Shown here in pieces: positions 1-37,830 of a DNA stretch of 64,000 nt; within the stretch, counting starts at the first letter, position 1; the number at the start of each line of letters is the position of its first letter. Source of the stretch: Muricea muricata (taxonomy: Eukaryota; Cnidaria; Anthozoa; Malacalcyonacea; Plexauridae); the NCBI GenBank assembly GCA_963855995.1, contig OY979730.1, forward strand, positions 2,356,501-2,420,500. The letters run 5' to 3'. The position numbers were made by a program, and so were the translations under genes. Under the pieces are notes generated by a model. The model saw only the letters and a program-made list of their open reading frames with translations. It was not told the DNA's origin and ran no database searches.

Positions 1-331
1 AATTCTCATACAAGGTTCACCAACATGTTCTAATGCAATAAACCGTAAAGCTTTTGTTGTTATGTTCCCCTAAAGTTTTTTTTTATGGCTACATCGTTGT
101 AAGCATTTTTGTTTCCAGATATCTGAAGATAATGGAGATAAAGTTGGCTTTTTTCAGTAGCAGATTGAGCTATACAAGTTATCTTATTTGCTTTCCAACA
201 CAAAACATGTCGTAGAATTTATTAGGCTGCAAAATAATGTAGAAACATTACCGTTTCGTGTGAAACTTATTTCCTGTTTACGAAATCAACCGTGTAATTC
301 GAGTGATATGTCGTCATTATGCATTCTCCTC
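1..331 (-). pseudogene. Relic of an F5/8C (discoidin) exon pair from another receptor copy
   Basis: Bases 1-122 read on the minus strand match the second F5/8C exon of the intact receptor gene (4276-4411): the ISGN start, the Tyr-Asn-Asp stretch and the Glu-His-Val-Gly-Glu-Pro-Cys-Met-Arg end are all recognisable. An A-run followed by a 2-base shift breaks the frame and gives an early TAA. Bases about 245-331 resemble the first F5/8C exon (4815-5119), but no open frame survives. The order is that of a minus-strand gene extending left of the window. I read it as a dead, partial tandem copy lying downstream of the intact gene. Whether its remaining exons exist cannot be seen here. Confidence 0.7.
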
Positions 332-1415
332 TATCATTCTTGAGTCATTGATACACATCGCTATCTGCACATTTTTGACTGAGAAAGAAGCAGTTCCGGC
401 AAAAAATGAAAACTGCAATATGAAGGCATTAATGTAGCCACCCATTTGTGCTGAAAACATTTCATGATGCACTGCCACAGTTTAGTTGCTTTTTTAGTAA
501 CATAGCTTTTCATGTTTTCATTTGCTCTAAACATCTTCCCTGAAAAACTCGAAGATTCCCTTAATTCATAAGTAATTAATTATGAATTAAAATAACATTT
601 GAATTTTTCAACTTAGATATTTAAAGTCATGAAGATGTGACCACCTATGTTACATTTAAAGGGAAATGGCAACAAATTAATTTCTTATCGTTTTATTTGA
701 AAGAGACTCATTTGAAAGGGTAAAAGACAATATATAGAAGTCTATTACAGAATTTTTATGCCTGCTTTATTCTTGAGATATTTTGATTAGAAATATTGAG
801 ATGTCCGTCATCTTATATATTTGTAGATATGCATCTTACGTCACAACTGGGGTCACAATTTTATTTCCTTATGAAACAATGACTAATATTCGACTATAAC
901 CGCATGTACGGTGAGTCCTCTGGATTTCAACACTGTCCCGACTGAAAAAGTTTTAAACAATATCTACAATGTTGGTAGGTATTTAGGAGTAGCTTTACGA
1001 TGGCTAAACCCTGTTGTGACGTCACCAAAACGTAGTTAATGAGGGTAAAAATTAATCCTAGATGGCGGACAGTTCGTTTATTTAGTTCGTTCTTAGTACA
1101 TGCTTGCTAATTGAGCCAAAAGTGCAAAATAAGGTTTTAAAGAACCAGTTTCAGTTGCCAGCCAGAAGTGGTTCTTGTATTTTGGTTGCTTGATTGTCAA
1201 AATTTCAGGCTGAGGGTTCGTAACCCACTGGTTCTTTTATGCGGAGTTTTACTGTACGCAGTCTTCATGGTATGATCTAAGTCAAATCAAATTAATTTAT
1301 TGTCAAACTAATTTACAAAATCAGTGAAAAACGTTGCTGTCCACAAATAGCAAAAGCTAGTCGAGTTGGAACACTCACTATGTTCTAACTTGTTTCTGAA
1401 ATAAGACAAAGTTGT
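332..1415. other. Receptor 3' flank, no gene seen
   Basis: AT-rich sequence between the discoidin relic and the stop codon of the intact receptor gene. No supported coding exon is visible on either strand. It should contain the receptor's 3' untranslated region. Confidence 0.5.
1296..1301 (-). promoter_or_regulatory. Candidate polyadenylation signal AATAAA of the receptor gene
   Basis: On the minus strand this hexamer reads AATAAA, about 115 bases after the receptor stop codon at 1416-1418. Position and strand fit, but such hexamers are common in AT-rich DNA. Confidence 0.4.
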
Positions 1416-9816
<8,401 letters not shown>

Positions 9817-9996
9817 CTTTTCAAATCCGCTAGTATAAACGCTTTAGTTCCACGTGCGTATTATAGACACGGAAGTCGAACTGAACCAATGTAGCGAAAC
9901 GAGATAAATTAAATATTCATTGAACTCGACATGTCTGTGGTTTTCTAGTTTTACGAATTATCATTGAACCTGTGACAGAAAGAAATGTGTTAACTG

Positions 9997-11010
9997 TTAA
10001 GTATATTCACATTCAACGTAATTTACGACCAGAACGTTGTCAAACAAATTTTTTTTATTATTCCAAACATGTATAACACGATTCCCCCCCCCCCCCCTCC
10101 CCTTAACCCCGGATTTTACGCCGAAGGAATTGTGATGCTTAAAAAACAAAGAATTTGCAAAATCTCTTATCCAAACGTTTACGTTCTGTTTAGAGCAGAA
10201 GACAGGAAAAGACAGGCAGTTACTTTCGTAGCTCGTGCGTTTCTGTCGAATCTGTGATTGCGTCCCGCGTGACATCTTCGTTCTAATTCGTCTTATCCTT
10301 GTGCCTGATCTTGACCTTGATTTTGGATATGGCAAATATATTTTCCAAAACTTTTGTTTTACAACAAGGAAAGAACTGCGATGATGCGTTTCCAGTAGTT
10401 TCTGGTCTTTTTCCCGACTGAAAGTAATTGGAAGTTCACCTTGAGCTGAGTAGGTTGATAAGGCCACCTTCCTTTGCGTTTATCTCACCGCTGTACATGT
10501 TAGTTAATACTCGAGGGCGTGGTATAAAAAGACATGTATCTGAGTGTTTTCATCAGTGCTTCCCGATGGCACAGGCTTTTTGTTATAAGACGTTGCAGAA
10601 TCGTATCTAAGTCGACGACAAATGACATTATCAGCGTTGTTGTTTAAACTTTGCAATACACCAACTTTGCAATAAACCTTAACAATCTAGGTCCCGCAAA
10701 GTTTTGTCACTATCTTTATAAAATCTTCATTGTGCACGGATAAATACGATAGAATCACGTCATGCACTACAAAATGATAATCAAGAAATAATCCAAAGCG
10801 ATGCGGAATTTCTCAAACTTCATTGTTTTTATTTGGAATTTTGGAATTACTCGTACTAAAGACAAATCTAGTTCTAGGTGCCCTTGAAAATATGCGTGCA
10901 ATGAAAGATTAACATAATGTTAAATTTTACAAAATTAAACTTTTCCTGCTGTACTTACCACAAACCCTATCAAACGTTCGAGTAATATCATCAATGTTTC
11001 AAATTACAAT
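9997..11010 (-). pseudogene. Decayed receptor exons: SUEL, SRCR and Ig relics
   Basis: Three dead exon fragments lie in minus-strand order. Near 10955-11010 is the 3' end of a SUEL exon, matching 6117-6165. Near 10535-10790 is an SRCR-like stretch matching 5370-5560, with indels. Near 10330-10500 is an Ig-like stretch related to 11690-12000 (NAKEG, SAQGELPITF), in which the first Ig Cys is Ser and the core Trp is Arg. The surrounding frame runs on without a domain. No signal peptide or TM exon is attached, so it is the remnant of a third receptor copy or of exons moved between copies. Confidence 0.7.
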
Positions 11011-12439
11011 CAGTACCTTATCACAGTTATTGTAAAACGATAAGAACTAAGCTACGCTTATTTCTTAAACTGATACAAACACAGCATTCATACTATGTAA
11101 TGTACTATTAAATATACAGTATATGTGATGATGTAGTTATGGTTTCATTAATGTGTCTCAAATTGCAAAGAACCTCCTTAAATTCCAGTTTTTTACTGAT
11201 TCGCGTTATTCTTTTGTACTTCATTTAAATCACAATACACATGACCATCATCATCTCTCTACCCAGGCTTTTTCGGAGCTGTATACGTCGACTGTTCATT
11301 TACCACTTGTTCATAATTTCCTTCATCTGCAAAAGGAATTTCATAAATTCCTTTTGAATTATTTCTCTCCTTGCTTTTCTTCTCTCGGTCATCCTTTAAG
11401 GAATTGAGACGACGGTTTTGAAAGATGGAAGAAGCAATAATAACCATTGCAATGGCGAGCAAAACTGCTAGAACAGTAATTCCGGCAAGATATTGAACAC
11501 CTACATGAAAAAAAGCTATGGTTGCTTGAAATTAGAAGAATTAGTGTAAAAAAACCATGAAAATTAATTTTTCAATCAATAATATGAACAAAAAATCGTG
11601 AGAGCGTATCTTCATGTCTGGTTGATGTTTAGACTGTCTGTTTAGTTGAATTGTTTCATAAAATTAATACAAAATATGTCTTCTTGGACCGCCTGTGTCT
11701 TCTTGGACCGAACTTGTATCCTCTAGTTTCTGGACAGAAATTGTGTGAGTAGTTCTTTGAAATCGATCTTGGATATGACAAATATATTTTCCAAAACTTG
11801 TTTTATTTTTTACTTTTACAACAAGTAAAGAACTACCATGAGGCTTTTCCATTTCCATAAAACTTTCCAGTGGTTTCTGATTTTTTTCCAACTAAAAGTA
11901 ATTGGAGGCTCACCTTGAGCAGAACACAGTAGGTTGACAAGATCACCTTCCTTTGCTTTGATGTCACCGCTGGACATGTTGGTCAATACTCGTGGACCAC
12001 CTGATAAACATAAATTACAAAAAGTATGATCGAAACACATCACGAAATGTATTCGCATTATTTTCCCAGTCATTACCAGTCTGCTTTCTTTATTCGTAAC
12101 ATTAGCATTGACGTTTAGCCATCGAAGAAACCAGTTAACTATATGCTGTGTTTACCTGTATATTTGTTCGTGGTCGAAACAGGGCTCCAGTCTGTGGAGT
12201 AATATTCACCCTGGTAGTAAGAAAAATCTACCTTTAAGTTTAGACATGCATATTATGTAATGACATGCTCTCCGGCTAAATTTTGGGTGATGAAAATTTC
12301 GAATGCGTCGCTTGAAACGATTATCAACTTATCATTACAGGTTTTAATAGAAATTACTAGAGTTTACTCGAATTTAGTTTTACACCGGTGTACGCTGCTG
12401 TTCGTACATATAGAGAAGATAGTGAAATGAGCGCTATGA

Positions 12440-13020
12440 CATCTACATCTACATGCGCGTCTTTCAATGGCTTACTGTCTGGTTACAAGAACGATGTCTT
12501 GTTCCTCGAGGAGGACGGAGTTCTATCACCAGATTTCGTGAAGGTCATGTGGTATGTGAGCGAAGTAAAGCGACGTAATGCTCATATCATACAGTTCGCG
12601 CTCGGAGGGTGGTCTGGGGAGAATATGATCAACGCACATCCGGACACGTTTGTCGTGCGCACCGCGTGATCAATGCGTGGGATCGCGTATGGTATTAACC
12701 AATCAACGTGGTTGTATTTTAAAAGTCTCAGGAGCGACTATTATGCTGATCCGCAAAATGATTGGTGTGAATCGATGGGGTTAGTGCTTGGAAACAGTAG
12801 CGGCGCCAGCGCGATAAGTGAGGGGGACATATTCATATATTCGTGTTCTGAACACGAATATATGAATATGTCCCCCTCACTTATCGCGCTGGCGCCGCTA
12901 CTGCTTGGAAACACAACAATAATACTGGATTTAGAATTGTTGTTCCTACGTTGAGTCGTATTTGGCATATAGGTGAGTCAGAATGCCCATATCCGAGTAA
13001 CTTGAGACTTTAAATGGCAA
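12440..13020 (+). pseudogene. MGAT2-like exon 2 fragment with element insertion
   Basis: This is close to exon 2 plus the start of intron 2 of the gene at 20072-22543: the same FLEEDG segment, QFALGGW and the intron sequence after the GTGAGT donor. The acceptor CAG is changed to CAT, an in-frame TGA occurs near 12667, and a 109-bp palindromic element interrupts it at 12795. Exons 1 and 3 are missing. It is inserted, in the opposite orientation, within the dead receptor paralogue. Confidence 0.85.
12795..12903. mobile_element. 109-bp perfect-palindrome hAT-type MITE with 8-bp target duplication
   Basis: Two identical 54-base arms beginning CAGTAGCGGCGCC face each other around a single T. The element is flanked by the direct repeat CTTGGAAA (12787-12794 and 12904-12911). 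The uninterrupted paralogue at 21520-21530 shows the empty site. Eight-base duplications and CAG-starting termini are typical of hAT transposons; the family assignment is inferred. No base differs between the arms, so insertion was recent or the arms are corrected. Confidence 0.9.
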
Positions 13021-13178
13021 CTGAAAAAATAATTCTTTGCTTCGATTTTCAAGAATTTATGCGGGTTCATTAAATTTTACATGAAAGGCAATTTTCGAAA
13101 TGCTTGGGATGTCCGAGAAAGCCGTTTTGCGCCGCAGGTATGAATTCTCATTGCCAATTGTCGAGAACACTTATTATA

Positions 13179-13320
13179 AGTAATAACATGGCTTTGAGGT
13201 TGCTTGGTGATTAAATGTCCCGAAAGCCGAGGGACGTTTGGTAAAAGCCAACTTTTACTAAACCTCCCGAGGCTTGAGGGACATTTAATCACTAAGCAAC
13301 CGCAAAGCCATGTTATTACT
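13179..13320. repeat. Inverted-repeat element, first copy
   Basis: Arms of about 70 bases starting AGTAATAACATGGCTTTG pair with few mismatches. A truncated relative is at about 49750-49850. The sequence downstream (TACGATTAGCTAGTAATCG, then CGTCACTAGTAAAACAAAGG) is shared with that second locus, so the hairpin is part of a larger dispersed repeat. Confidence 0.7.
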
Positions 13321-13709
13321 TTGTAATTTTATTGTCACCGAGACAATAGGAACGCTTTTCCCTAAAATTTAACTATAGCTGAAATGGAATAAAACTTTGT
13401 GTGTTGTAATTAATCTCTGTAGTGGTGTAGTTAGGGATTTGGAAGGGGCAAGTGTGCAGAATGTAAATATCAACATTAACATTAACAAAGGTTAATTGGG
13501 TATGCTCATGTCTGTCTTGCATAACTAATAAGCGCAGGTGTTTGGCATAAACATTAGATACGATTAGCTAGTAATCGTACCCAGTGCATAAATACTAGGC
13601 ACGACTAGCCACTGATCCTACCTGGTGTATATTCATCGGATTATTTAGTTGTTAATCGTCACTAGTAAAACAAAGGATTTCGAGGTGACTATGATATTAC
13701 ACTAGTATA

Positions 13710-13937
13710 ACGGACGAAGAATTAGATGCGAAAATAGTATCTATTCTTAGCTTTTCGCCAAAATCTGGGGAAAGAATTATACATGTTGGGGCTCTTACTG
13801 CCAGAAATATCAAGGTTAAAAGAGGGAGAGTGCGTGCATCTATTTCTCCAGTAGATCCAGCAAAGAAGTTCGGCATACCCCTCTTCAGATGTGAATACAT
13901 TTCTACTCAGGTCATTAAAAAGATCTTTACCAAGTAA
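13710..13937 (+). pseudogene. Fragment of a DDE integrase-like transposon protein
   Basis: A 75-codon open stretch (TDEELDAKIVSI, GERIIHVGAL, VRASISPVDPAKKFG) ends at TAA 13935-13937. It resembles the N-terminal helix-turn-helix part of the integrase-core proteins that are common in cnidarian and fish genomes. The catalytic core that should follow is missing and no start codon is apparent. It is a small truncated remnant abutting a dispersed repeat. The family call is from memory of the pattern. Confidence 0.5.
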
Positions 13938-14045
13938 AAGGTATGAACAAATTTCCTGAAAGTATGGATTTAGACTGATTGCAACCTCTGGATTGCAACT
14001 GCAACTTCGTGCGCCCGCGATATATTGAGCCCGCCATCAGTTCTA

Positions 14046-14130
14046 AGTAGTTTTATTTTTTCGAACAAGTCTTATTTTCGAACAAGCATTATTTTCGAAC
14101 AAGTCTTATTTTCAAATAAGTCTTATTTTC
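14046..14130. repeat. Degenerate short tandem repeat TTATTTTCGAACAAGTC
   Basis: Four to five imperfect copies of a unit of about 17 bases. The overlapping open frame is a by-product of the repeat. Confidence 0.6.
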
Positions 14131-16400
14131 TTTGGAAATGTTTAATTTTTGCAACATGTGCTTTATTTCATTTCGAAAATTGTTGTGCGTGTATGTTTAC
14201 CAGTTTGATTTTTCCAAACAAGTCTTGTTTTTTGCAGAAAGTATTTTTGTCCCGTGCGGCGCGCCATATATTTACACCTCAAAATCAAACTCAGAATATC
14301 AAAGTTTTTCTAACATGAACTAAAGTGTATAGTATAACACCCAGTGGAAGCACACTATATTTACAATGTTGTGTGCTACTACTGAGTGCGACAGTTACAT
14401 ATAAATAATGATACAAAATTTTACATTTGGTTGGCGGGCTTTGTCATGCTACATCGTATGTTGCTCATTGTAGCACTGAGTGAAGCGCTATGGCTTTCTT
14501 GACATTTATGCCAAGTTTCAAACGAAAATTCGGGAAAATAAAAAAGATACAGTGAGTTATTCGGCATTTCGAAATTACGCGACAGAAGACAGTGTTAGTA
14601 GTGGTAGTAACTTCGCAGAACAAGCAGTCAAACTCGCATTCTTACAATAGTGAAGAATCAGCTAAACAAAACAACAAGAACATAGGTTAGAATAACAACA
14701 ATAACACGAGTTAGATGGGGGATAAGCAAACAGACTCGAAGTCTCGACAAGGCAGATCCCGTTAACAAAATTAGAAAGCTAGAGTCAAGACTTATAACAT
14801 TACGGACGATGACAGAAAATACCTAAAATAACAAAGGATGTCAAGGTTAAATCTTACTGAAGAGCAACACTAACCTACCATTAGAGAATGTATATCACTC
14901 CAAAAATAACTCTTAATCCTGCATGGCTTAATTCATCTTGAATTTGATACTTTAGGATTTAGATGTAAAATTGCAAGAGAAAGTGAAATCGGAAAGAACA
15001 CGTTGTGAGAAATTAGCCTCAGTGAAATATCAGTTTTATTCTATCGCGAAGCTCAAATGTTTAAAATTTTTAGTCTACTGCGTTGTTATATATAGATTCA
15101 TGTGCTTGGTGTCTTTGATATAGTCAAGGATAGTTTTTACAATATTATATCAAAACTGAAAAACGACAGAATCACAACAGTATCGTTATAGTCTAGCGTG
15201 CAAGTATGAACTTTAAGTTGGTGATAAATGACATGAAAAAGAAATATTTTTTAGTTTGTTAATCATTCGCGATATAGGTTTCTTTGGTGATGGCTTGCTG
15301 CTTACCTCGAAAACAGTTTTTGCGAAAAGGTTGCATATTTTTTTAGTCAAAGAATATCAGCTTTATATTACTATTTACTGTAATTGTTTGTGTTTGTATA
15401 ATGATACATCCAGAATATTTGGTGGAAATTCACTCGCTTACATCTGCCAGAAAGAGAAATACCACTAGAAATTGCAGCAGATATCTCAAGTATGAACAAG
15501 TCTTCAAAAAAACTGACCGAAATTAGAACGTTTATCCTCAGTATCGTTACAATTTGTCGTCAATCCAATGTAGGGATCTATTTGAATTCGTGAATCTCTT
15601 TTAGGGAATGCACACCAGGTCTGGACTGTGGTCTTACGGTACCCTTTATATTTTACAGATAAACCTTCGCAAGAGATCTAGGTAATACCAGCATATTTAT
15701 CCCAGTCAGCACGATCGGCACAAGCTTCAGAGTCTAAACCTCCAGAGCTAACATAAATATAAAACATATCAAGCCAATACCCAGATTTAGCTCTATATAA
15801 AGGAGAGAGACATCCAGGTCTTTTCAGGTTTAACATTGCGCTATTATCACGAAACCGAAACTGAGCAACTGGATCAAGACAGTTGTTGGAAAGTTCAACA
15901 AAAGTCAAGTTTCCCCATGCTCTATTTCCCTGTATTATTCTTGTATCAATGATACACATCCCTGTCTTCACATGTTTCACAAAGAAACCAGTGGCAGCTG
16001 GAAGAAAGTAAAAATAGAGAAAATGAGCGTTTCAACGACATTGATAGTGTTTTGAAATGCACCTCTATGTCCACTTGTAGATCTTTTATTTGTCGAAACG
16101 TAGATTCATCTTATGTAATCTAGTTCGGGTTAATTATCAACTGTTCATCCCACCCACTCCTAAAATTTTGGTTTTGTCCCCACACTGCAGTGGGGGACTT
16201 GGCTCAAACATTGTGGTTGAAAATTGATCTCTCGTATCATGACTGTATACATAGCTTGAAATATTATTGGTCCTGCACAACATTACTGCGTATGTGAAAA
16301 CACGTTATATATATGAATTAGAATACTTTTTATGAACAAGAGAATACGTACCCTGAGCTAGGAGGAGTATCACTATCCATAATGCAAAGTTTGGAAACAT

Positions 16401-17605
16401 CTTTTCTGATGAGGGAAACGCTTTAATTCAATATAAATACGGAAGACGAAATGAATCAATATAACGAAACAAAATAAACTAAATATTGGCCTCGACATGA
16501 GGTGCGTTATGAGTAGTAATCATGGAACATTGTCAAACAAATAATCAAACAAATTATTTTAGACCTATTATGGTTAAAGCAAGCATTTTATAATGTATGG
16601 AAGTAATGTGTTATATTTTAAGTATTTTAGGACAAGAATTTGGTGAAAGCAAAAGTTCTTATACCTACTGTTCTAAGACCAAACAAAAAATTTTCAATGT
16701 ATACTGTTTCTCTGTTGTAAACGTCTACACTGTTCTGTTTGGTGGAGACTAAGAAAAAGAAAAGACAGACGGTTACTTTTTCATCATTAGCCACACGAGC
16801 ACAAGTTAAAACAAAGGAAAAAACAAAGAAATGCAGTGAAGTGTGCGACATAAGCATCAACATAAGCACAAGCGTAAGTCAGACTACGAGCATAAGACTA
16901 CGAGCATAAGACTACGAGCATAAGACTACGAGCATAAGACTACGAGCATAAGACTACGAGCATAAGCTATAGTAGAGCAAAAGTAAAATAAGAGAATTCT
17001 TTCTGCTTTGTCTTCTTAAACCTTTGAGGAAAAGTTATCCTTTGTTATGTTGCTCATGCGAGAAATCTGATTGTTTTGGTAGAATAAAAAATAAAAGGTA
17101 TTTCGTGAGAAAAATAGTACTCGCTATCTATCGAGGATCGAAAGAGTGGCCAGTTAAGTGGCAACAGTTAGTCACTGATATGAATAGTGCATCCGAGTGA
17201 GTGCAACCTCGTTGCTGTGTGCCTGGGTACGAGGTTGGTACACCGGCTTGACGTTGGTGTTATCAACTTCTCGTTTGACAAAACCAAACATGGCCGCTGA
17301 CTAAGAGCGGCTTTGTCAAAACAATATTGAAAATTACAGTCAATTCCATATCACATCCTTGCGTCTTCCGTTTGATAAAGACTTGGCAAGTGGGAGCCTT
17401 TGCAATGGGATTATCTCAGGCAACGTATGCAGCAAGACGATATGATTCGTTTCGATTTTAATCGAGCTTTTGGAAGAGGTCTGAGCAACACACTAAAATT
17501 GACCCGGCTAACGTTTGCGAGAAACTGTCAAATTTATTATCAATATTTACAGTAAGTGAATAACATTAAAACTTTAGTATTTGAGGGCATATATCTAATG
17601 AAGGA
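16401..17605. other. Intergenic, divergent 5' flanks; contains a 14-bp tandem repeat
   Basis: This lies between the dead receptor's start (minus) and the aldo-keto reductase start (plus). At about 16881-16967 the unit AGCATAAGACTACG is repeated around six times with almost no change. No coding exon is supported. It should hold the reductase promoter. Confidence 0.6.
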
Positions 17606-19378: not shown

Positions 19379-20071
19379 AAGTGCTAATGCATAAAGTGAC
19401 TTGGAGCTGTGCTGCTACGATCTTGGAAGGCAGTAGAATTTGTGAAATTACGGCATTAAAAGCACTATTTTTCTAACATCGTATTTGACTGTGGCAAAGC
19501 TGACAATTGGCGTTGGAACGGCACTTTACGGCACGATCCGATGCAATAGGATACGTTACGTTACATGACCATACCATACGGTTGAAGTAGAAAGATCATA
19601 GGCAGACATCCGGTAGATTATAGAGATTCAGGCCCCGTTTACAATAGGTTAGGGTTTTGCCCTCGTCAACTATCACCGGGAAGAAATCTCGTGCTCGTAA
19701 CCTAATCATAATCGTGACCGAATTGAAACCGTTTTTATCCCGGTCCCATGTAAAAGGGACCTAATATGAACATTGTAAAAATAGTTTTTTAAATTTTCCA
19801 TATAATTTTCTATTTGGCTTCTACGAAGTCGTATTACTTCTCTGTATCAAAGATGAAGTAATAAAAATGTGTGTTGTGTGGGTCAAAACAGTGTAAAAAT
19901 CATTAGTTCACCCCGAGCATGCATGCTATAGATAATTGTTGCATACGAACATTGGTATCTTAGCAATTGGACGCCACGTTAATAATTGTGATGAGGAGAT
20001 AAAAGTATTAACATATATCAGAAAGCACAATTTTTGTACAGCACTGACACAGAACCTTACAATACAACATA
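19379..20071. other. Intergenic; reductase 3' flank and GT copy 1 promoter
   Basis: No coding exon is seen. About 19629-19761 looks like a short MITE with near-complementary ends (AGGCCCCGTTTACA and TGTAAAAGGGACCT). An AATAAA at 19860-19865 lies on the plus strand. Confidence 0.45.
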
Positions 20072-22543
20072 ATGTTTAAGATACGACTGGTCTTAGTGTT
20101 TCTGTTGTTGTTACTTCTGTTTTTCTCGTGTCTTTTATGGAAGTTTGTTACAGAACAGGACATGAGGGCAGAGCGGTCGTTTTCAAAATTACAACTGAAT
20201 TGTAAAGGAGTGAGCCAGGAACTAGAGTTGATAAACAATGCGGTTCAAAGCGTGCGAAATGAAATCAGTCAGTTAAAACAACACAGTCCTCCAGTGGTTG
20301 TGAAAGATTTCAAGAAGAGGAAGAAAACTTTACCAAAATGGATCGAGCGTTTTGCTGCACCGCACTGGTCAGAATTTAAACCGTGGCGTGGAGTGTTAGT
20401 ATTTTTCGTAACCTATCGTTATGCCTATCTCAGAAAATGCCTCGAATCAATCGCCTTCGCTTCGGAAGATATCGTCAAGTCCTCGGTTTGCGTGTTCGTG
20501 CTGGACAGAACGCCAGTGACAACCGAGCGGGAAATGAACCAAACGCTGGCAGTGATCAGAAATGTGACTTTCTGTAGAGTTGTTGAGTGGAAAGTTGAAA
20601 AGGAAGCACACGGCATTCACGAGGACACGAATTTTGCTTTGAGGTTGAAAAAGCACTGGTGGTTTGTGCTGGAGAGCGTTTTCAATGCCACGATAACTGG
20701 TAAGCAGATTGCCCAAAGCTGTTCCAAGAAAATTGTTATCAAAGTTGTTAGACATAACTTGTATGTATGTGTATGTATGTATATATTTAAGTTTACCTCG
20801 CAGCCAAAGGCTGAATTACGTAAATTACAATAAATTCTACTAATATAGTATAAATATTTACAAAAATACTTACAAAAGAAAGTTGAATTGTATCTAAAAA
20901 CTCCAAGAATGAACAATATTAACAAAGATTATGTTTGTTACACATCGCATATATAAAGGAGTTTTTAACTCTATTTGTGAGTCATAGGAATGTTAAAGGT
21001 CCTTTCTTGCCTCAAATTATAACTAGGTTGATTCCTGTCCGGTAAAAGATTATGGATTTTATGATTTACAAGTATTCAGGTATTTTTTTACGTGTGAAGC
21101 GGACTTGTGCTTAGAGGTCATGTAACCTCGAACCAATACGACCTACTCTATTTCTAACGATATTTTCTTTCTCACATCTACAGGCGCGTCTTTCAATGGC
21201 TTACTGTCTGGTTACAAGAACGACATCTTGTTCCTCGAGGAGGACGGAGTTCTATCACCAGACTTCGTGAAGGTCATGTGGTATGCGAGCGAGGTAAAGC
21301 GACGTAATGCTGACATCATACAGTTCGCGCTCGGAGGGTGGTCTGGGGAGAATATGATCAACGCACATCCGGACACGTTTGTCGTGCGCACCGCGCGATC
21401 AATGCGTGGGATTGCGTATGGTATTAACCAATCAACGTGGCTGTATTTTAAAAGTCTCGAGAGCGACTATTATGCCGATCCGCAAAATGACTGGTGTGAA
21501 TCGATGGGGTTAGTGCTTGGGAAACACAACAATAATACTGGATTTAGAATAGTTGTTCCTACGTTGAGTCGTATTTGGCATATAGGTGAGTCAGAATGCC
21601 CATATCCAAGTAACTTGGGACTTAAAATGGCAACTGAAAAAATGATTCTTTGACTGGGTTTTCAAGGATGTATATATGCAGGTTACGTCACAAATGGGAC
21701 ACGTTTAATTACTGACTTGTATGGTAAATCCTGGTCGAGCATCTAGCATCTTAGATGACTTCGCTGCGATCAAACTAAACCGATGAAATCCTGTCTTTTG
21801 TAACATTGAACTATAAGTCAACTCGAAGGAAGGGAAATTTGTCGTAATTTTTCAAAATTGCAGTTGTTTTCGTCTTTCGTAGGCATTTCTTTTTTGTCTG
21901 AAGTTTTGAATTTTTCAATTAAATATAACTTTTTAATGGCTTCAATTTGATATGCGTTCCGATCTTTCGCGTTAAGTATTTCGACTCAAAACTAAGAACA
22001 ACTAACTTGGCTTTACCCATTAACTGGAATTTTGTATTGAGTTAACGTTCCAGTTGTAGTACAGTTCAGGTGAACACAGTATTCAAAAGAAATTTCCCAG
22101 CATTTATTTTTAGAAACTTGATAACATTTCTTTAGAAATCTTGTCTGAAACATTAGTTGCTTTGGTGCTAGCTCTGAGAAACAAAATATGAATTATTAAA
22201 CCTTCGTGGGAAGTTCCTTGCTCTTTTTCAAATCCTTGCTCTATTCTAAATCTCTGTAGGTAAGCGCGGTCTGGGACCTGGAGGCGACTTCAATTGGGAA
22301 CGTGGAATGACACCAAAACCTAACTGGGAGTACGCGAGCAGATTACTGGACCTGAAGCGCGCTCAAGTTAATCTGGGTCTCAGAGATTTAGTAGGTTTTC
22401 TTTGCAAGAAAAGGATAGAATTCTGGTTTCTTAAAGAAACGGAGTGTCTAAACAGCTTGAGAAGGTGGAAGGGAAGTGATAGGAATAGAATAATGTGTGC
22501 CAAACAGCCGCACGTCACAGATCCTTGTGATGTTTATGTTTAA
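20072..22543 (+). CDS. MGAT2-like: MGAT2-like Golgi N-acetylglucosaminyltransferase, copy 1
   Basis: Exons 20072-20699, 21184-21585 and 22260-22543 (both introns phase 1) give 437 residues, close to the usual length of alpha-1,6-mannosyl-glycoprotein 2-beta-N-acetylglucosaminyltransferase (GT16). Residues about 4-24 are a type II membrane anchor, followed by a coiled-coil-like stem. The catalytic region has FVTYRYAYLRKCLES (like the MGAT2 start strand), KKHWWFVLE (like its HHWWW motif), the metal-binding acidic triplet Glu228-Glu229-Asp230 in LFLEEDG, NDWCESMG and RIWHIG. The C-terminal 95 residues differ from vertebrate MGAT2. The expected role is GlcNAc transfer to N-glycan mannose in the Golgi; the acceptor may differ given the divergence. 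It is the most diverged of the three copies and the source of the fragment at 12440-13020. Confidence 0.82.
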
Positions 22544-22908
22544 GACTGCGAAAAATAACGTCGAGGTTTCATCGGAAGGGAAATGCATCCGGCCGCAAGA
22601 AAAAGGACTCCTTAAAAAGATTAGATTGAAGATATAGAAATATACCTTCAAATATTAAAGTCTTCATGCTATTCCAAAATTATTGAAAAATAATTGAAAC
22701 TCCGTTACAAGTCATCTGAGTAGAATAGCTGTTGTAATGAATTGATTTATAATATAGTAATATAGTTGTAATATTGTATAGTATAACAAAATGTTCATAT
22801 ATTATTTGGACAGTTTCAATTTATTATAAGAGCTATTCTTCTGAAGATGACTTGTAATACATGTCGAAACGTACGGAATAAAATGTTGGCAATTTACGAC
22901 GTATCAAT

Positions 22909-23287
22909 GGAGCATTCCCAATTAGACAAACTTTTAAATTCGAAAACAATTTTTGCGCAGTTGGAAAGAGCTTCCTAAATTTAGTGAAATTGCGAAGTTT
23001 GGTTGCAAAATATTGTACAATGTTGAAAATATAGTCGTGTAAAGCTTGCGAATTTTCTGTACTTCTGTATTACGCGGAAAAAGCGTTACCACATTTCCAC
23101 ATAGTGGTAACGATTTTCCGTGCGTAATACAAAAGTATACAAAATTCGCAAACTTTACAGGACTATATTTTCCACATTGTACAATATTTTGCAACCAAAC
23201 TTCACAATTTCACTAAATTTAGGAAGCTCTTTCCAACTGTGCAAAAATTGTTTTCGAATGTAAAAGTTTGTCTAATTGGGGAATGGC
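22909..23287. mobile_element. Foldback element, about 380 bp, first copy
   Basis: Long arms beginning CATTCCCAATTAGACAAAC pair across a centre near 23098 (TTCCACATAGTGG). The arms diverge by several bases, so it is older than the 12795 palindrome. The second copy at 26820-27202 is part of the larger block duplication, not an independent insertion. Confidence 0.8.
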
Positions 23288-23664
23288 CAATTATTTTTTG
23301 TTTCATGCTATTTACTTTGTGTAAATATTGATTATAAATTTGACAGTATAGCCATAGGTGGTTCAATTTGACTGCATTGTTTAGAACTTTCCAAAAGCTC
23401 GATTAACACCGAAGTGAACCATGTAGACTTGCTGCTCAAGTTGTCTGAGATAATTTCATCTCAAAAACTCGCACATGTTAAGTTATTATTAAACGGAATA
23501 CGGAAGAACGTGAGATGATATTGATTATAATTTTCAATATTGTTTTAAGAAAGATCTTACTGTTCTATTAACCGTGCTCTTAGAACACACTTATGTTTTG
23601 GCACACGCGTTATATGCATTCGAGTGAAAATGTCGGCTTTTTTATTCATGCCGGACAAGCTAAT

Positions 23665-23806
23665 TAGAGATGTTCAGATTTGACTACTGCTACCGTTATT
23701 TTTAAAGAATTTGATTGGTTAATCGGGTAGGTCCAACACATCTGATTGGCTGAACGATAGATTATGGTAACGGCAGAGGTATTGGAAGCCAAATCTGAAC
23801 CTCTCT
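23665..23806. mobile_element. Short foldback element, about 142 bp, first copy
   Basis: Termini AGAGATGTTCAGATTTG and the near-complement CCAAATCTGAACCTCTCT. The inner arms match around CTGATTGG. A copy sits at 27581-27726. Confidence 0.7.
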
Positions 23807-24565
23807 CATACATGCCTGACTACGGCTGGAATCGACGCAACTTGGGTAGCACTGCTTTCACTAAAGCGCAACCTTTGCTTTCACTAAGTCTTAAAATACT
23901 TTGAAATGTTTGTCAATATGCTTGAGGTAGTTATAAAGTGTTTGCTGTAATCATCATAAGGCTATAAAGAAAGACTTTTTGTTTGATAATTCAGTTCGAT
24001 AATGTTCCATCATTACTATTCATAAAATGACAAAAACACAACAGACTTCATGCGGAGTTATATGAATAATATCTTTTAGGTTCTGCATGCAGGCTGTGTA
24101 AGGAACGCATGTTCAATATAATTTCGTCTCGCCACGTCAACTATCAAGGCCTTCCCTGTTCATAATATGTAATCATAAAGCATTTCCTCGTCAGAAAAGA
24201 CATTTCTAAACTGAACTATGCATCGGTACTGATATTTCTACTAGTCCAAGGTACGTGTTGTGTTGTTTATAAAAATCATTTTAATTTCTATTTTACCGGT
24301 ATTGTCATACACGTAAAATTTGTCGTGCGGAACCAGAAGTATTTCAAAACTATGGATACAAACCTACGACAATTTTAATGTCAGTTACATTCTGTCAAGT
24401 CGATCTAAGTGCGGTAATTGACAAAACTAAATTTTAGTGGTTTCAAAACACCACTAATGTAATGAAAGGCTCGATTGATTTGTTTTTACATTTCTTTTAA
24501 TACCCGCTACTGGCTTCTGTGTGTACAGATAGCAATTTGTACAGACGACACAATTATACACGTAC

Positions 24566-24854: not shown

Positions 24855-26819
24855 CTGCATCCGGCCACAAGAAAAGGGCTCCTTAAAAAGATTAGATCAA
24901 AGATATATTTTTAGAATATACAATAACAGCCTTTAAATTCAGTCGTCAGAAAAGACATTTCTAAACTGAACTATGCAGTATATCGGTACTGATATTTCTA
25001 CTAGTCCAAGGTACGTATTGTTTTGTTCATAAAAATCATTTTAATTCATAATTTACCGCAGGTACTGTCATACACGTAAAATATGTCGTGCGGAACCAGA
25101 AGTATTTCAAAACTATGGATACAAACCTACGACAATTTTAATGTCAGTTACATTCTGTCAAGTCGATCTAAGTGCGGTAATTGACAAAACTAAATTTTAG
25201 TGGTTTCAAAACACTACTAATGTAATGAAAGGCTCGATTGATTTGTTTTTACATTTCTTTTAATACCCGCTACTGGCTTCTGTGTGTACAGATAGCAATT
25301 TGTACAGACGACACAATTATACACGTACGTAACAGATCCTTGTGATGTTTATGTTTAAGACTTGTGTATGTTTAATGCAGCGAGAAAAAGCAGAGGTTTC
25401 ATCGGAAGGGAAATGCTTCCCACCGCAAGAAAAAGGGCTTCTTAAAAAGATTGGATCAAAGATAAATTTTCTAGAAAATAGCAGCTGGGAAATTTGTCTG
25501 AGCATGCGCCAGATAAGCCTGCGTGAACGCGTGGAAATTGCGTGATTTACGCGTGATATTTAAAAATCATGTAACAAACATGGATCACAAGTATTTTCAA
25601 TGGACTAAACGACCTTTTAGCGTAATTTTTAAGAGCACGCAAACAAATCAGGTGAGTAGATATAAACATGAAGGCCAAGTTCCAGCTAAAATCATGTTGG
25701 AGCAAAAGGCTGATTTTTTAAAATTCGACTCAAACTAGTCAACGCTCGTACTCGAACAACAGTACAAAAATGTGACTGAAATCGATCGACTAAACGCATT
25801 AGTCAATTGAAAAATATCCTTACCATTTGTACGAAAACATTTATACAGTATCAAAGACATCATTGCACTGACAGCCCACGTGATTGTGGATGTTTTATCA
25901 CTTTCACGACCATTTCAACAACAACCGTAATTTAAAGTACTTTTCCGGTAGCGAGTTTCATAACAAACTATTGGCCATGAGCGGAATTTATAAAACAAAA
26001 AAATTGGTTTCGAAAGGAACATAAACATATTGGAAGTAACAGGAAACACATAACTTTTTGGAGCAAAAGCTAAATTTTTCAGTATTAAGTCAAACGTAAA
26101 TTCAACATCGCGCTTAATTCTTGGCAACCCACTCGCATGTCAAAGTTTGGAAATTTGCTTCAACAGACGATGTCATCAGTTCAAAATATGATTAACTGAC
26201 AGCTATATCAGTCCTTTACTGAAATCAATAAAAAATTGTGAACAAAATTATAACTGGCTCCTCAAAGAAACTAAATTCCGAGCACCTCTGAAACCAATCT
26301 GTATTTCGCAAATAATATGCTAATTACATTTTGTGTTCAGCCGCCAACAATATTTTTGCACAGCGGTGACAAATTTCCCAGCTGCTCTAGAAAATACAAT
26401 AACAGCCTTTAAATTTTACCCTCTAACGTAACATCTGTCGCTCCAACAATTCCTGTCTCTGCATTGGTCACATTGAGACAAGCATGAAGTCTATGTATGC
26501 TATATTCCTGTCATTCCTTCAATAAAAATATACCTTCAAATATTAAAGTCTTCATGCTATTCCAAAATTATTGAAAAATAATTGAGACTCGGTAAGCTGG
26601 CGACATTTTTCCTATACGTTTTGACAAGTATTACAAGTCATCTTTAGTAGAATAGCTGTTATAATGAATTGATATGTATAATATACTATAGTATAACAAA
26701 ATGTTCATATATTACTTGGACAGTTTCAATTTATTATAAGACCTATTCTTCTGAAGATGACTTGTAATACATGTTGAAACGTATAAAAGAAAATTTTGAC
26801 AATTTACGAAGTATCAATG

Positions 26820-27202
26820 GACCATTCCCCAATTAGACAAACTTTTAAATTCGAAAACAATTTTAGCACAGTTGGAAAGAGCTTCCTAAATTTAGTGAAA
26901 TTGCGAAGTTTGGTTGCAAAATATTGCACAATGTTGAAAATATAGTCGTGTAAAGCTTGCGAATTTTCTGTACTTCTGTATTACGCGGAAAAAGCGTTAC
27001 CATGCACATTTCCACATAGTGGTAACGCTTTTCCGTGCGTAATACAAAAGTATAGAAAATTCGCAAACTTTACAGGACTATATTTTCCACATTGTACAGT
27101 ATTTTGCAACCAAACTTCACAATTTCACTAAATTTAGGACGCTCTTTCTAACTGTGCAAAAATTGTTTTCGAATTTAAAAGTTTGTCTGATTTGGGAATG
27201 GT
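26820..27202. mobile_element. Foldback element, about 380 bp, second copy
   Basis: Duplicate of 22909-23287, carried by the block duplication. Its right end reads GATTTGGGAATGGTC and the arms remain complementary. Confidence 0.8.
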
Positions 27203-29146
27203 CAATTATTTTTTGTTTGATGCTATTTACTTTGTGTAAATATTGATTATAAATTTGACAGTATAGCTATAGGTGGTTCAGTTTGACTGCATTGCTTAGA
27301 AATTTCCAAAAGCTCTATTAACACCGAAGTGAACCATATTGACTTGCTGCACAAGTTGTCTGAGATAATTTCATTTCAAAAACTCGCACATGTTAAGTTA
27401 TTATTAAACGGAATACGGAAGAACGTGAGATGATATTGATTATAATTTTCAATATTGTTTTAAGAAAGATCTTACTGTTTTATTAACCGTGCTCTTAGAA
27501 CACACTTATGTTTTAACACACGTGTTATATGGATTCGAGTGAAAATGTCGGCTTTTTTATTCATGCCGGACAAGCTAATTAGAGATGTTCAGATTTGACT
27601 ACCGCTACCGTTTCCCGATTTTTAAAGAATTTGATTGGTTAATCGGGTAGGTCCAACACATCTGATTGGCTGAACGATAGATTAAGGTAACGGCAGAGGT
27701 ATTGGAAGCCAAATCTGAACCTCTCATATATGCCTGACTACGGCTGGAATCGACCCAACTTGGGTAGCACTGCTTTCACTAAAGCGCAATCTTTGCTTTC
27801 ACTAAGTCTTAAAATACTTTGAAATATTTCTCAATATGCTTGAGGTAGTTATAAAGTGTTTGCTGTAATCATCATAAGGCTATAAAGAAAGACTTTTTGT
27901 TTGATAATTCAGTTCGATAATGTTCCATCATTACGATTCATAAAATGACAAAAACACAACAGACTTCATGCGGAGTTAGGAATAATATCTTGTAGGGTCT
28001 GCATGCAAGGCTGCCTAAGGAATGCATGTTCAATATAATTTCGTATCGCGACGTCGAGTATCAAGAACTTCCCTGTTCATAATATGTAATCATAAAGCAT
28101 TTCCTCGTCAGAAAAGACAATTCTAAACTGAACTCTGAATTATATCGGTAATGATATTTCTACTAGTCCAAGGTACGTATTGTTTTGTTTATAAAAATCA
28201 TTTTAATTTATATTTTACCAGTATTGTCATACACGTAAAATATGTCGTGCGGAACCAGAAGTATTTCAAAACTATGGATACAAACCTGCGACAATTTTAA
28301 TGTCATTTACATTGTGTCAAGTCGATCTAAGTGAGGTGGGATGGCAAAACTAAATTTAGTGGTTTCAAAACACTACTAATGTAATGAAAGGCTCGATTGA
28401 TTTGTTTTTACATTTCTTTTAATACCCGCTACTGTCTTCCTTGTGTACAGATAACAATTTGTACAGACGATACAATTATACATATGACATCTGTGGGGGC
28501 TATAATACCTGTAGTAAGGCATTAAGGGCTTTATCAAAAGCTTTTATACACTTAACTATTTCAATTAAGTTTGTCTTTCCAAAAGCATAGACTATGAATT
28601 ATGAGCACGCAAGATTATTTAAGCAATCATATTCGGGAAATACCTTTGTAGCAATAGCGGCTATAATTAACTAGTAACGGCTCACGGGAACGTTAGAGTC
28701 TATAGTTACGTAGTAACGAGTTTCCATATACTTGTACAAGGATGAGTTATATCTTACCAATTGCCCTTTTTAGAGTATATATTGGTAATTTAGGTGAGAA
28801 AACTGTGAACTCCATACATATCTGGAGTGAGAATCTCAGTCATTTGGTCTCCAGAAAAGTGAAGCCCAGAGATGACGGAGAGTGAAGGAGCAAAAAGACG
28901 TCAACCTTAGTCCTGTGAGCGGTCAGCACAGACTCAGTGTTGACTGCGCAGATGACTGAGATTGATGCCAGGGGCGTAAATTAAGGGGGTGGGATGGGTG
29001 GGTGTCCCATGTTCGCTCAAATTGACTCATTGGACATTTGTATGCATTTACAGGATATACCACTAACAAGCGTATTCAAGAGGCGTGTTGACATATTATC
29101 ACATAGCTGTTTATTGTGCATCACAGTGGCCAGTACACAGTACAAG

Positions 29147-31921
29147 ATGATCTTCAAACAACGATTAGTTTTAGCATTTCTGCTGTTATCCATGCTATTT
29201 TTCCTGTGTATTGTATGGACATTTGTAACAGAACAGGACAGGACTACTAAAGTATTGTTTTCGAAATTACAAGTGCATTTTAAGGCAACGAACCAAGAAC
29301 TAGACTTCATAAACAACGGAGTGCAAAGTATAATAAATGAAATCAGCCCGACAAAGAGAAATGAAACTTTACCAAAATGGATCGAGCGTTTTGCTGCGCC
29401 GCACTGGTCCGAATTTAAAACGTGGCGTGGAGTATTCGTGTTTTTTGTCACCTATCGTTATGCGTATCTCAAAAAATGCCTCGAATCGATTGCCTTGGCT
29501 TCGAAAGATATTGACAAGTCCTCGGTTTGCGTGTTCGCACTAGATAGGACACCGAAGACAACTGGTCAGGAAATCAATCAAACATTGGCATTGATCAGAA
29601 AGGTGACTTTCTGCAAAGTTGTTGAGTGGAATGTTGAAAAGGAAGCACATGGCATCAAGAAGAAAAATTTTGTTATGAGGTTAAAAAGACTTTGGTGGTT
29701 CGTGTTGGGAAGCGTTTTTGAAGCTACGATATCTGGTAAACTTGTTAAAGTATTGATAAATTCATTTAATGTTCAATCAATTGGTTGTCACATAGTTAGC
29801 AACTGTCTCAGTATTAATTAGCTGAGATTCTTAATGCCAAATGCCTTCAAATAATTGCCCTGCATATAACAGTTGTGAGATTCGGTAACCTCTGCTTAGT
29901 AAACATCTACTCTCTAGTAAAGATCTATTCTCTAGTAAAGATCTATTCTCTAGTAAAGATCTATTCTCTAGTAAAGATCTACTCTCTAGTAAAGATCTAC
30001 TCTCTAGTAAAGATCTACTCTCTAGTAAAGATCTATTCTCTAGTAAAGATCTATTCTCTAGTAAAGATCTATTCTCTAGTAAAGATCTATTCTCTAGTAA
30101 AGATCTACTCTCTAGTAAAGATCTATTCTCTAGTAAAGATCTATTCTCTAGTAAAGATCTACTCTCTAGTAAAAATCTACTCTCTAGTAAAGATCTACTC
30201 TCTAGTAAAGATCTATTCTCTAGTAAAGATCTATTCTCCAGTAAAGATCTATTCTCTAGTAAAGATCTATTCTCTAGTAAAGATCTACTCTCTAGTAAAC
30301 ATCTACTCTCTAGTAAAGATCTACTCTCTAGTAAAGATCTACTCTCTAGTAAAGATCTACTCTCTAGTAAAGATCTATTCTCTAGTAAAGATCTATTCTC
30401 TAGTAAACATCTACTCTCTAGTAAACATCTACTCTCTAGTAAAGATCTACTCTCTAGTAAAGATCTACTCTCTAGTAAAGATCTACTCTCTAGTAAAGAT
30501 CTATTCTCTAGTAAACATCTACTCTCTAGTAAACATCTACTCTCTAGTAAACATCTACTCTCTAGTAACGATCTATTCTCTAGTAACGATCTATTCTCTA
30601 GTAAAGATCAGGGGCCGGTTGGACAAAAGATGGATAGTGTGCTATCCACTGGATAGTGATTTTTTACCCTGTCTTAAAAATGCTTTTAAATGCAATTAAA
30701 CTAGATATACTTTAGCCAAATTTTAAGTTTCCTGCTTTACCTTAATGCTAAACACTAGATTTGACCATTCCAGTAAAACAACAATTTTACGATGTTTAAA
30801 AAAGTCGCTATCCGGTGGATAACTTTATCCCGCTTTCGTACAACCGGCCATGCTCTCTTTCAAACCTACAGGTACATGTTTCAATGGCTTACTATCTGAC
30901 TACAAACGATGTCTTCTTTGCTCAGTAGAGATCGACTTATTGTGTCTTAAATCACTGATTTCGCTTTTCTACCACATGTGCTTATTGTATCTTTCCCTCC
31001 ATTATGTGCATAAAACATCACATAAATTTGTACGCAACATAATTCATAACACAACACTACTCTCCAGTGGTAGTCAGTAATGATCTACTCTTTCACATCT
31101 ACATGCAGGCACGTCTTTCAATGGCTTACTGTCTGGTTACAAGAACGACATCTTGTTCCTCGAGGAAGACGGAGTTCTATCACCAGACTTCGTGAAGGTC
31201 ATGTGGTATATGAGCGAAGTAAAGCGACGTAATGCTCATATCATACAGTTCGCGCTCGGAGGGTGGTCTGGGGAGAATATGATCAACGCGCATCCGGACA
31301 CGTTTGTCGTGCGCACCGCGCGAGCAGTGCGCGGGATCGCGTATGGTATTAACCAATCAACGTGGTTGTATTTTAAAACTCTCGAGAGCGACTATTATGC
31401 TGATCCGCAATCTGACTGGTGTGAATCGATGGGGTTAGTGCTTGGGAAACACAACAATAATACTGGATTTAGAGTAGTTGTTCCTACGTTGAGTCGCCTT
31501 TGGCATATAGGTGAGGTTATACGCTAACTCAATAATGCTAACTACCAAGGGTTAGCACTAACCCTGCTTTGCCCTAAAAAAAGAAATAATTTTAAACTTT
31601 TATACGAAATAGGACGTAATCTTTGCTTTATTTCTAGGTAAGCGCGGTCTGGGGCCTCGAGGCGACTTCAATTTGGAGCGTGGAGTAACGCTAAAACCGA
31701 ACTGGGAGTACGGGAGCAGATTACTAGACCTGAAAAGTGCTCAAGTTAATTTGGGTCTCAGAGATTTAGCAGGATTTCTTTGCGAGAAAAGGCTAGAATT
31801 CTGGTTTCTTAAAGAAACGTTGTGTCCAAACAGCTTCAAAAGGTGGAAAGGAATTGATAGGAACAGAATAATGTGTGTCAAACAGGAGTACATCACAGAT
31901 CCTTGTGATGTGTATGTTTAA
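29147..31921 (+). CDS. MGAT2-like: MGAT2-like Golgi N-acetylglucosaminyltransferase, copy 2
   Basis: Exons 29147-29735, 31109-31510 and 31638-31921, phase 1 introns, 424 residues. The open frame extends upstream to 28994, but the start at 29147 (MIFKQR) aligns with copy 1 and places the membrane anchor at residues about 6-24. The acidic triplet is Glu215-Glu216-Asp217, and the HWW-like motif reads LWWFVL. Compared with copy 1 the stem is shorter by about 13 residues. Intron 1 contains a 40-unit minisatellite and a decoy fragment of exon 2. Copy 2 is nearly identical to copy 3 and belongs to the tandem duplication. The function is expected to be N-glycan GlcNAc transfer in the Golgi. Confidence 0.82.
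29896..30610. repeat. 18-bp minisatellite, about 40 units, in intron 1 of GT copy 2
   Basis: The unit CTCTAGTAAAGATCTATT has C/T and AAAG/AAAC variants arranged in blocks. Because 18 is divisible by three it stays open as repeated IYSLVK, but it lies after a good GTAAAC donor and has no counterpart in copy 3, where only about two degenerate units remain (38715-38765). I treat it as non-coding. Confidence 0.95.
30872..30925 (+). pseudogene. Decoy partial exon 2 in GT copy 2
   Basis: After the acceptor-like CAAACCTACAG, about 40 bases resemble the start of exon 2 (FNGLLS) and then diverge. Splicing here would stay open for about 70 codons and stop at 31078-31080 without the EED triplet. The same fragment is at 38781-38835 in copy 3. 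Confidence 0.65.
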
Positions 31922-35505: not shown

Positions 35506-35602
35506 CTAAAGGAAAACTTGGCGATGTTTAGTTCCATTTCACAGAATAAACATCGTGGGATAATTCTGATCATCTTCAGGCATCAATGGGTTGACCATGT
35601 GG

Positions 35603-37316: not shown

Positions 37317-37317
37317 G

Positions 37318-37607
37318 TCGACGAAGGATCTGCGTCCGTGCTTAACGCATCCCGTGAAAGCCGCAAGCTTAAGTTTGATACCTTGTCAGTGATGCTCTTA
37401 GAGCTATCGTCTGTTATTTTCACAGACGTTTGACTAGCATTGTTTCTTGTCATGGTTGACTCATCTGCCTCAGCTCGTGCAGAAGTGACTCTATCGTAAT
37501 CCGGCTCTGCAACTGTCTCGGTTGTGGAATATCCATCGCAATTTGATTGCCGCTTTACATTCGATGCGTTTGTACCACACACGCCTTCTTCGAGCTGTTT
37601 GTTGTTT
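37318..37607 (-). pseudogene. Fragment of the AGBL5 large exon
   Basis: Matches 46164-46450 within the insertion of the AGBL5 catalytic exon, with scattered substitutions and an open frame. It is cut off abruptly at both ends, on the left by the tandem array. It marks the junction of the tandem duplication. Confidence 0.85.
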
Positions 37608-37830
37608 CATCAGACGCGACTTTCACCTCATAAATTGTTTCAATTTTCTGCCGACTGACGGGCAAATTTTTTAGTAACTCGTTTTTAATGAATCCAGTTT
37701 CGAATGCAGTCTTAATATCTATCGAGTCCGGGTTTTGTAAAAGCCAGTCGGGTTTTTCTAATGGTAAGTCCGATTGTCTGGTCCGGGTTTTTATCGAGTC
37801 TAGGTTTTCTACCGGGGGGGGGGGGCTCAT
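37608..37830 (-). other. Unrecognised open stretch at the duplication junction
   Basis: Read on the minus strand, this is open and looks protein-like (LEKPDWLLQNP, DIKTAFETGF, NLPVSRQKIETIYEV). It joins directly to the AGBL5 fragment in another frame. I do not recognise a family. It has no counterpart upstream of copy 2 and may be a piece of a transposon or of a distant gene. Confidence 0.3.

What the first reader, a model, noticed from the sequence alone, without database searches (positions are those of the whole stretch)
1..16400. Birth-and-death cluster of mosaic receptors resembling an allorecognition or immune locus
One intact gene sits among at least three damaged relatives (1-331, 9997-11010, 11259-16400) on the same strand. 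Dead copies keep signal-peptide and TM exons at the same phase but differ in the middle. Such turnover is usual for polymorphic recognition loci. The immune role is inference.
Basis: partly seen in the sequence, partly recalled or inferred. Interest (0 to 1): 0.75.

Follow-up and report, generated by a model that had tools for sequence, protein, structure and literature searches.

The report
Mosaic lectin-type receptor with dead relatives
One apparently working cell-surface receptor gene, built from several sugar-binding and adhesion modules, sits in an animal genome among broken copies of itself; the turnover is real, but nothing in this sequence shows that the locus tells self from non-self.

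Summary
The observation largely holds. Gene A (9816→1416, minus strand) has 12 exons and an unbroken 947-codon frame: signal peptide, orphan domain X, SUEL lectin, SRCR, F5/8-type-C, two FN3, a juxtamembrane region with an RRRR site, one TM helix and a 37-residue tail. Three damaged relatives share its strand: B (16400→11178), C (11006→10311), D (394→1). Only B keeps both signal-peptide and TM exons. Three relic heads on the opposite strand (about 22.6-28.5 kb) were missed.

The mosaic claim is strengthened. B and C carry an Ig exon that A lacks. A and B differ less at synonymous sites in X (26 of 111) than in TM plus tail (24.2 of 41.7; Fisher p=1.8e-4), so their modules have different histories. 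TM plus tail was under purifying selection (dN/dS 0.22); X not clearly (0.68).

The allorecognition reading is not shown: A has no Ig domain, polymorphism could not be tested, and a neighbouring glycosyltransferase-like array turns over too, with a fragment lodged in B. Coral papers report such turnover widely, though mostly in immune-type families. Best reading: an adhesion/pattern-recognition type receptor with a tyrosine-motif tail. Organism and expression are unknown; "cnidarian" is inference.

The parts
9768..9816 (-). Gene A exon 1: signal peptide (ends in phase 1)
   Evidence: ATG, GTACGT donor
6699..7193 (-). Gene A exon 2: orphan domain X (6 Cys), phase 1-1
   Evidence: no Pfam or PDB match up to E 10; two-row profile best PDB hit E 0.52
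6117..6419 (-). Gene A exon 3: SUEL lectin domain, phase 1-1
   Evidence: PF02140, E 1.8e-10
5259..5558 (-). Gene A exon 4: SRCR domain, phase 1-1
   Evidence: PF00530, E 2.2e-12
4815..5119 (-). Gene A exon 5: F5/8 type C domain, first part
   Evidence: PF00754, E 5.9e-16
4276..4411 (-). Gene A exon 6: F5/8 type C domain, second part
3703..4005 (-). Gene A exon 7: FN3 domain 1 (weak donor GTCACT)
   Evidence: PF00041, E 1.2e-27 for both
3149..3439 (-). Gene A exon 8: FN3 domain 2
2827..2902 (-). Gene A exon 9: start of juxtamembrane region
   Evidence: phase-matched
2420..2720 (-). Gene A exon 10: juxtamembrane region with RRRR furin-like site (aa 822-825); PTP_tm-like below cut-off
   Evidence: PF18861 E 0.0057, 17.4 bits against cut-off 26.3
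2240..2318 (-). Gene A exon 11: linker
1416..1621 (-). Gene A exon 12: TM helix and 37-residue tail with acidic cluster plus YSHL, and YVNQ
16352..16400 (-). Relic B: signal-peptide exon
15518..15997 (-). Relic B: X exon with in-frame stop, 69% aa identity to A
12156..12210 (-). Relic B: linker exon (end read by eye)
11715..11998 (-). Relic B: Ig (I-set) exon with frameshift; absent from A
11178..11501 (-). Relic B: TM and tail exon; 43 codons that A lacks; in-frame stop in the tail
12439..13060 (+). MGAT2-like exon fragment lodged in relic B (12439-12796 and 12899-13060)
10945..11006 (-). Relic C: SUEL 3' end and splice site
   Evidence: 0 of 200 shuffles
10553..10796 (-). Relic C: SRCR fragment, disrupted
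   Evidence: 71.8%, E 3e-32
10311..10516 (-). Relic C: Ig fragment, disrupted, close behind the SRCR fragment
274..394 (-). Relic D: X start (394-320) joined to F5/8C end (316-274)
1..132 (-). Relic D: F5/8C second exon and flank, runs off the window
   Evidence: 85.6%
23301..24560 (+). Relic head E: upstream homology, SP-exon remnant, marginal X-start remnant; MGAT2-like 3' end follows at 24561
24943..25323 (+). Relic head F: 95.6% copy of the end of E; MGAT2-like 3' end follows at 25324
27216..28482 (+). Relic head G: segmental copy of E; X-start remnant not significant against B on its own

Best explanation
Gene A encodes a single-pass type I receptor. Its ectodomain stacks an orphan cysteine-containing domain X, a SUEL lectin, an SRCR, a discoidin-type domain and two FN3 domains; most likely it binds glycans or surface ligands of microbes, symbionts or neighbouring cells (inferred). 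Its short tail, with an acidic cluster before YSHL (hemITAM-like, recalled motif) and a YVNQ site (Grb2-SH2-like, recalled motif), would be phosphorylated to recruit SH2 proteins (inferred). The family changes by local duplication, exchange of phase-1 exons or gene conversion, deletion and death; that history is shown by the relics and by unequal module divergence. The turnover is shared with a neighbouring glycosyltransferase-like array, so it reflects a rearranging region and need not reflect selection for diversity.
For: Intact 12-exon frame; domains; X, SUEL, SRCR, FN1 and FN2 exons are 1-1 and the two F5/8C exons are 1-1 together; Ig exon in B and C only; synonymous differences X 26 of 111 against TM+tail 24.2 of 41.7 sites, p=1.8e-4; purifying selection on TM+tail, dN/dS 0.22, p=2.7e-5; tail and RRRR motifs; MGAT2-like fragment inside B, 95-96% identical to the copies; coral tandem-duplication passages.
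Against: No expression, ligand, polymorphism or orthologue data. X has no known fold. The tail motifs are short, were not tested, and the hemITAM match is loose. TM+tail is only 58 codons, aligned by hand without gaps, and its dS is near saturation (TM part 1.39). B is a pseudogene, so part of its divergence is post-mortem. A developmental adhesion role fits the domains about equally well.
Confidence: 0.5

Rival explanations
1. A functional allorecognition or histocompatibility locus: A and its (partly dead) relatives are polymorphic self-markers or receptors, kept diverse by selection.
For: Cluster with pseudogenes resembles the Hydractinia complex (at least 41 loci, and 44 pseudogene-like models, in passages of PMC11067881; 40 genes in passages of PMC11876637); tyrosine-motif tail resembles the ITIM/hemITAM tails reported for Hydractinia and Botryllus (PMC12065747 passages); coral-amplified families are said to be mostly likely self/non-self receptors (PMC10236652 passages); second half of X has dN/dS 1.04.
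Against: A has no Ig domain whereas Alr proteins are IgSF; only one intact copy in the window; X dN/dS is not above 1 overall (0.68) and the difference between its halves is reached by 53 of 1000 permutations; unrelated neighbours turn over too; no polymorphism data.
Confidence: 0.07
2. Neutral turnover only: gene A is an ordinary adhesion or developmental receptor that happens to lie in a duplication-prone region; the relics say nothing about function.
For: MGAT2-like array with 3 copies and segmental duplications at about 91-93% between 22.6 and 44.3 kb; unrelated families co-expand in coral non-syntenic regions (PMC12314368 passages); the FN3 part is closest to titin, RPTP F and delta and Dscam (60 of 173 hits shown).
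Against: Constrained TM+tail with a less constrained X fits a signalling receptor whose ligand side changes; SRCR and rhamnose-binding lectins are described as pattern-recognition molecules in cnidarians (PMC7563517 passages); coral tandem expansions are reported to be mostly immune-type families.
Confidence: 0.33
3. Assembly or sequencing artefact: relics are collapsed haplotypes or errors.
For: Tandem duplicates are hard to assemble (PMC10236652 passages).
Against: The A/B matches are 71-80% identical, beyond ordinary allelic difference (recalled); similarity outside exons was found only near the SP exon and promoter and at the exon edges; several independent lesions; no Ns in the window.
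Confidence: 0.03

Closest known systems
Hydractinia allorecognition complex (Alr genes)
   Same: Clustered single-pass membrane proteins with many pseudogenes, and tyrosine motifs in tails (passages).
   Different: Alr ectodomains are immunoglobulin superfamily; A has SUEL, SRCR, F5/8C and FN3 and no Ig hit above cut-off; polymorphism not tested here.
Invertebrate SRCR superfamily and cnidarian scavenger-receptor-like proteins
   Same: SRCR domain in a mosaic with FN3 and other modules; tandem clusters in sponge and sea urchin (passages of PMC5119243 and PMC10855680).
   Different: The passages seen name CUB, trypsin, MAM, fibronectin and Ig partners; the SUEL plus F5/8C plus orphan X combination was not named in them.
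Botryllus fester co-receptors (FcoR)
   Same: Type I receptors, birth-and-death clusters, Y-x-x-I/L/V and hemITAM tails (passages).
   Different: IgV, sushi and C2 Ig ectodomain; paired loci; polymorphic haplotypes reported there, not tested here.
Receptor-type protein tyrosine phosphatases
   Same: Two FN3 domains that match RPTP F, delta and S chains, RRRR site and weak PTP_tm-like juxtamembrane region.
   Different: No phosphatase domain; 37-residue tail. Titin is the top FN3 hit.

Membership tests
Hydractinia-type Alr family | Immunoglobulin-superfamily ectodomain | tested here: not met
   No Ig family at its gathering cut-off in A (Ig_RIMBP2 16.2 bits against 27); Ig present in relics B and C
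Hydractinia-type Alr family | Cluster with related genes and pseudogenes | tested here: met
   A plus relics B, C, D and heads E, F, G
Hydractinia-type Alr family | High allelic polymorphism tied to fusion or rejection | not testable with these tools
   One haplotype only; the genome search not answered in 12 calls
Hydractinia-type Alr family | ITIM/ITAM-type tail | tested here: inconclusive
   YSHL after an acidic cluster and YVNQ in A; no pair of YxxL/I motifs in A or B
SRCR superfamily | SRCR domain above curated cut-off | tested here: met
   PF00530 47.6 bits, cut-off 26.1
Scavenger receptor class I | Only SRCR domains in the ectodomain | tested here: not met
   SUEL, F5/8C, FN3 also present
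SUEL / rhamnose-binding lectins | SUEL domain above curated cut-off | tested here: met
   PF02140 41.5 bits, cut-off 31.4
SUEL / rhamnose-binding lectins | Sugar binding | not testable with these tools
   no assay
Receptor protein tyrosine phosphatase | Cytoplasmic phosphatase domain | tested here: not met
   37-residue tail with no Pfam match up to E 1
Receptor protein tyrosine phosphatase | PTP_tm-like juxtamembrane domain | tested here: inconclusive
   17.4 bits against cut-off 26.3; no PDB match below E 0.26
Birth-and-death gene family | Duplicates of different ages, some dead | tested here: met
Birth-and-death gene family | Copy-number difference between individuals or species | not testable with these tools
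   no second animal genome reachable

The most novel reading that the evidence does not exclude
A lectin/SRCR-based (non-immunoglobulin) self/non-self recognition complex: a family of phase-1 mosaic receptors with a constrained tyrosine-motif tail and an exchangeable ectodomain, whose N-terminal X domain is an undescribed recognition fold that spreads between copies by gene conversion.
Probability: 0.07. Interest if true: 0.85.

Novelty: new member of a known kind. Interest (0 to 1): 0.35.

Why it matters
It documents, module by module, how a mosaic animal receptor changes: the TM and tail stayed constrained while the outer modules have different histories, and copies died by deletion and by capture of neighbouring gene pieces. 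If the family proved polymorphic it would give a non-immunoglobulin candidate for how corals and anemones tell self from non-self. As it stands it is a caution that a birth-and-death pattern alone does not identify an immune locus.

Tried and rejected
Rejected: A and B as simple tandem duplicates (synonymous divergence differs between X and TM+tail). Rejected: A as an RPTP (no phosphatase) and as a class I scavenger receptor. Not supported: a canonical ITAM in A or B (the tail comparison was out of frame and is replaced; one search stopped with an error after printing the tail figure). Weak lead: X as a beta-trefoil (recalled resemblance; an internal repeat score reached by 6 of 200 shuffles). 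Led nowhere: relatives of X in genome contigs and viral contigs, 70 stretches matched in each and none was confirmed; PDB with the X sequence and with the two-row profile (best E 0.52). Three paper searches that asked for a rhamnose-type or SUEL lectin with SRCR and a coral, anthozoan or cnidarian term gave 0 papers. Searches (4 papers; 21 papers, 19 listed), and passages of PMC8260672 (0 occurrences of SUEL and SRCR), showed no such architecture in what I saw; I used the listings and the passages named in the report. A vs B 3' UTR: no similarity (111 of 200 shuffles reach it).

Full report
OBSERVATION. Reading the strands and rebuilding exons by script gives one intact minus-strand gene, A: 12 exons from 9816 to 1416, 2844 nt including the stop, 947 codons, all 11 introns GT-AG, one weak donor (GTCACT, after FN1). 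Pfam finds SUEL (1.8e-10), SRCR (2.2e-12), F5/8 type C (5.9e-16) and two fn3 (1.2e-27), all above their cut-offs. The first domain, X, has no Pfam match up to E 10 and no PDB match up to E 10 as a single sequence; as a two-row profile the best PDB hit is E 0.52.

RELICS. tblastn of A's exons on the window and self-blastn place B (16400-11178), C (11006-10311) and D (394-1) on the minus strand. B keeps SP, X, linker, Ig and TM/tail, with a stop in X, a frameshift in Ig and a stop in the tail; no SUEL, SRCR, F5/8C or FN3 remnant was found within B at E up to 1. C holds a SUEL 3' end (0 of 200 shuffles), an SRCR fragment and an Ig fragment close behind it. D holds an X start joined to an F5/8C end (0 of 200 shuffles for each) and an F5/8C second exon. 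Only B, 1 of 3, keeps both SP and TM exons, so that clause of the finding is too broad. Three more heads, E, F and G, lie on the plus strand: F matches A (80.7%, 3e-7) and B (71.4%, 2e-15), G matches A (80.7%, 3e-7), and E is tied in by its identity to F (95.6%) and G (91.5%). Their start codons are lost (by eye). The X-start remnant is marginal in E (0 of 200, score 25 against a shuffle maximum of 24), not significant in G (2 of 200), untested in F.

MOSAIC. B and C carry an Ig exon that A lacks; B's is I-set at E 3.6e-11 with the frameshift masked. A's single-exon modules (X, SUEL, SRCR, FN1, FN2) are 1-1 and the F5/8C exon pair is 1-1 as a unit, which permits shuffling. A and B differ at 26 of 111 synonymous sites in X but at 24.2 of 41.7 in TM+tail (Fisher on rounded counts, p=1.8e-4). 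Either X has been homogenised by gene conversion or the two ends have different ancestors; the data do not separate these. TM+tail has dN/dS 0.22 (p=2.7e-5 against equality). X has 0.68 (p=0.12; bootstrap 0.40-1.14); its halves have 0.45 and 1.04, a difference reached by 53 of 1000 permutations. B's time as a pseudogene biases these ratios towards 1. Outside exons, similarity between A and B was found around the promoter, the SP exon and the start of intron 1 (0 of 200 shuffles for promoter and intron start, 0 of 50 for the whole of intron 1) but not in the 3' UTR (111 of 200). A's tail is 43 codons shorter than B's, in frame (offsets).

FUNCTION. The tail of A is [37 protein letters not shown]. 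An acidic cluster before YxxL resembles hemITAMs and YVNQ resembles Grb2-SH2 sites; both are recalled motifs, not tested. RRRR at residues 822-825 in the juxtamembrane region is furin-like, and the region matches PTP_tm only below its cut-off. Ligand binding by SUEL/SRCR/F5/8C is inference from the families.

CONTROL FOR THE INFERENCE. Next door is an MGAT2-like gene array: copy 1's middle exon matches MGAT2 (1.6e-9), and two further copies are 93-94% identical to it over that stretch and about 75% over the first-exon stretch. The three middle exons differ by dS 0.07-0.11. In passages of PMC12314368 expansions are again called likely immune, but functionally unrelated families also expand together by hitchhiking. 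The step from turnover to recognition is therefore weak, not excluded.

COMPARISON. [quoted passage not shown] 40 genes on chromosome 3 (PMC11876637 passages). ITIM and hemITAM motifs in Hydractinia and Botryllus candidates (PMC12065747 passages). SRCR mosaics in cnidarians and other invertebrates (PMC5119243 and PMC10855680 passages). Gene A fails the IgSF feature of Alr, so it is not filed there; it could still work like such a receptor. That the organism is a cnidarian is my inference from the gene types; no call identified it.

LIMITS. The organism's own genome, structure prediction and any second animal genome were out of reach. Expression, polymorphism and orthology are untested.

Noticed in passing
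window 22634-24560 and 26522-28482: Segmental duplication, 91.5% identical, carrying relic heads E and G.
   Followed up: partly
window 20048-22543, 28985-31949, 37634-39848: Three tandem MGAT2-like glycosyltransferase genes on the plus strand; the second and third lie in duplicated blocks (28996-35925 and 37816-44240, matched in four main pieces at about 91-93%).
   Followed up: partly
window 17311-17570: A stretch about 0.9-1.2 kb upstream of relic B is 76% identical to stretches upstream of relic heads E and G: shared distal upstream element or old mobile element.
   Followed up: no
window 12797-12925: Palindromic sequence between the two MGAT2-like fragments inside relic B (by eye), possibly a mark of template switching.
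   Followed up: no
window 37318-37607: A 290-base piece 93.8% identical to part of the M14 carboxypeptidase-like ORF at 46166-46455: another displaced gene fragment.
   Followed up: no
window 35614-37318 and 43956-44247: Long minisatellite arrays (TACTACTGTAGCTTAGGTT-type units).
   Followed up: no
window 53152-57014: Plus-strand ORFs with ankyrin repeats (53152-53655, E 1.1e-14) and a Schlafen AlbA_2 domain (54996-57014, E 1.3e-14), possibly one gene; later ORFs up to 61466 look ankyrin-like by eye and were not scanned.
   Followed up: no
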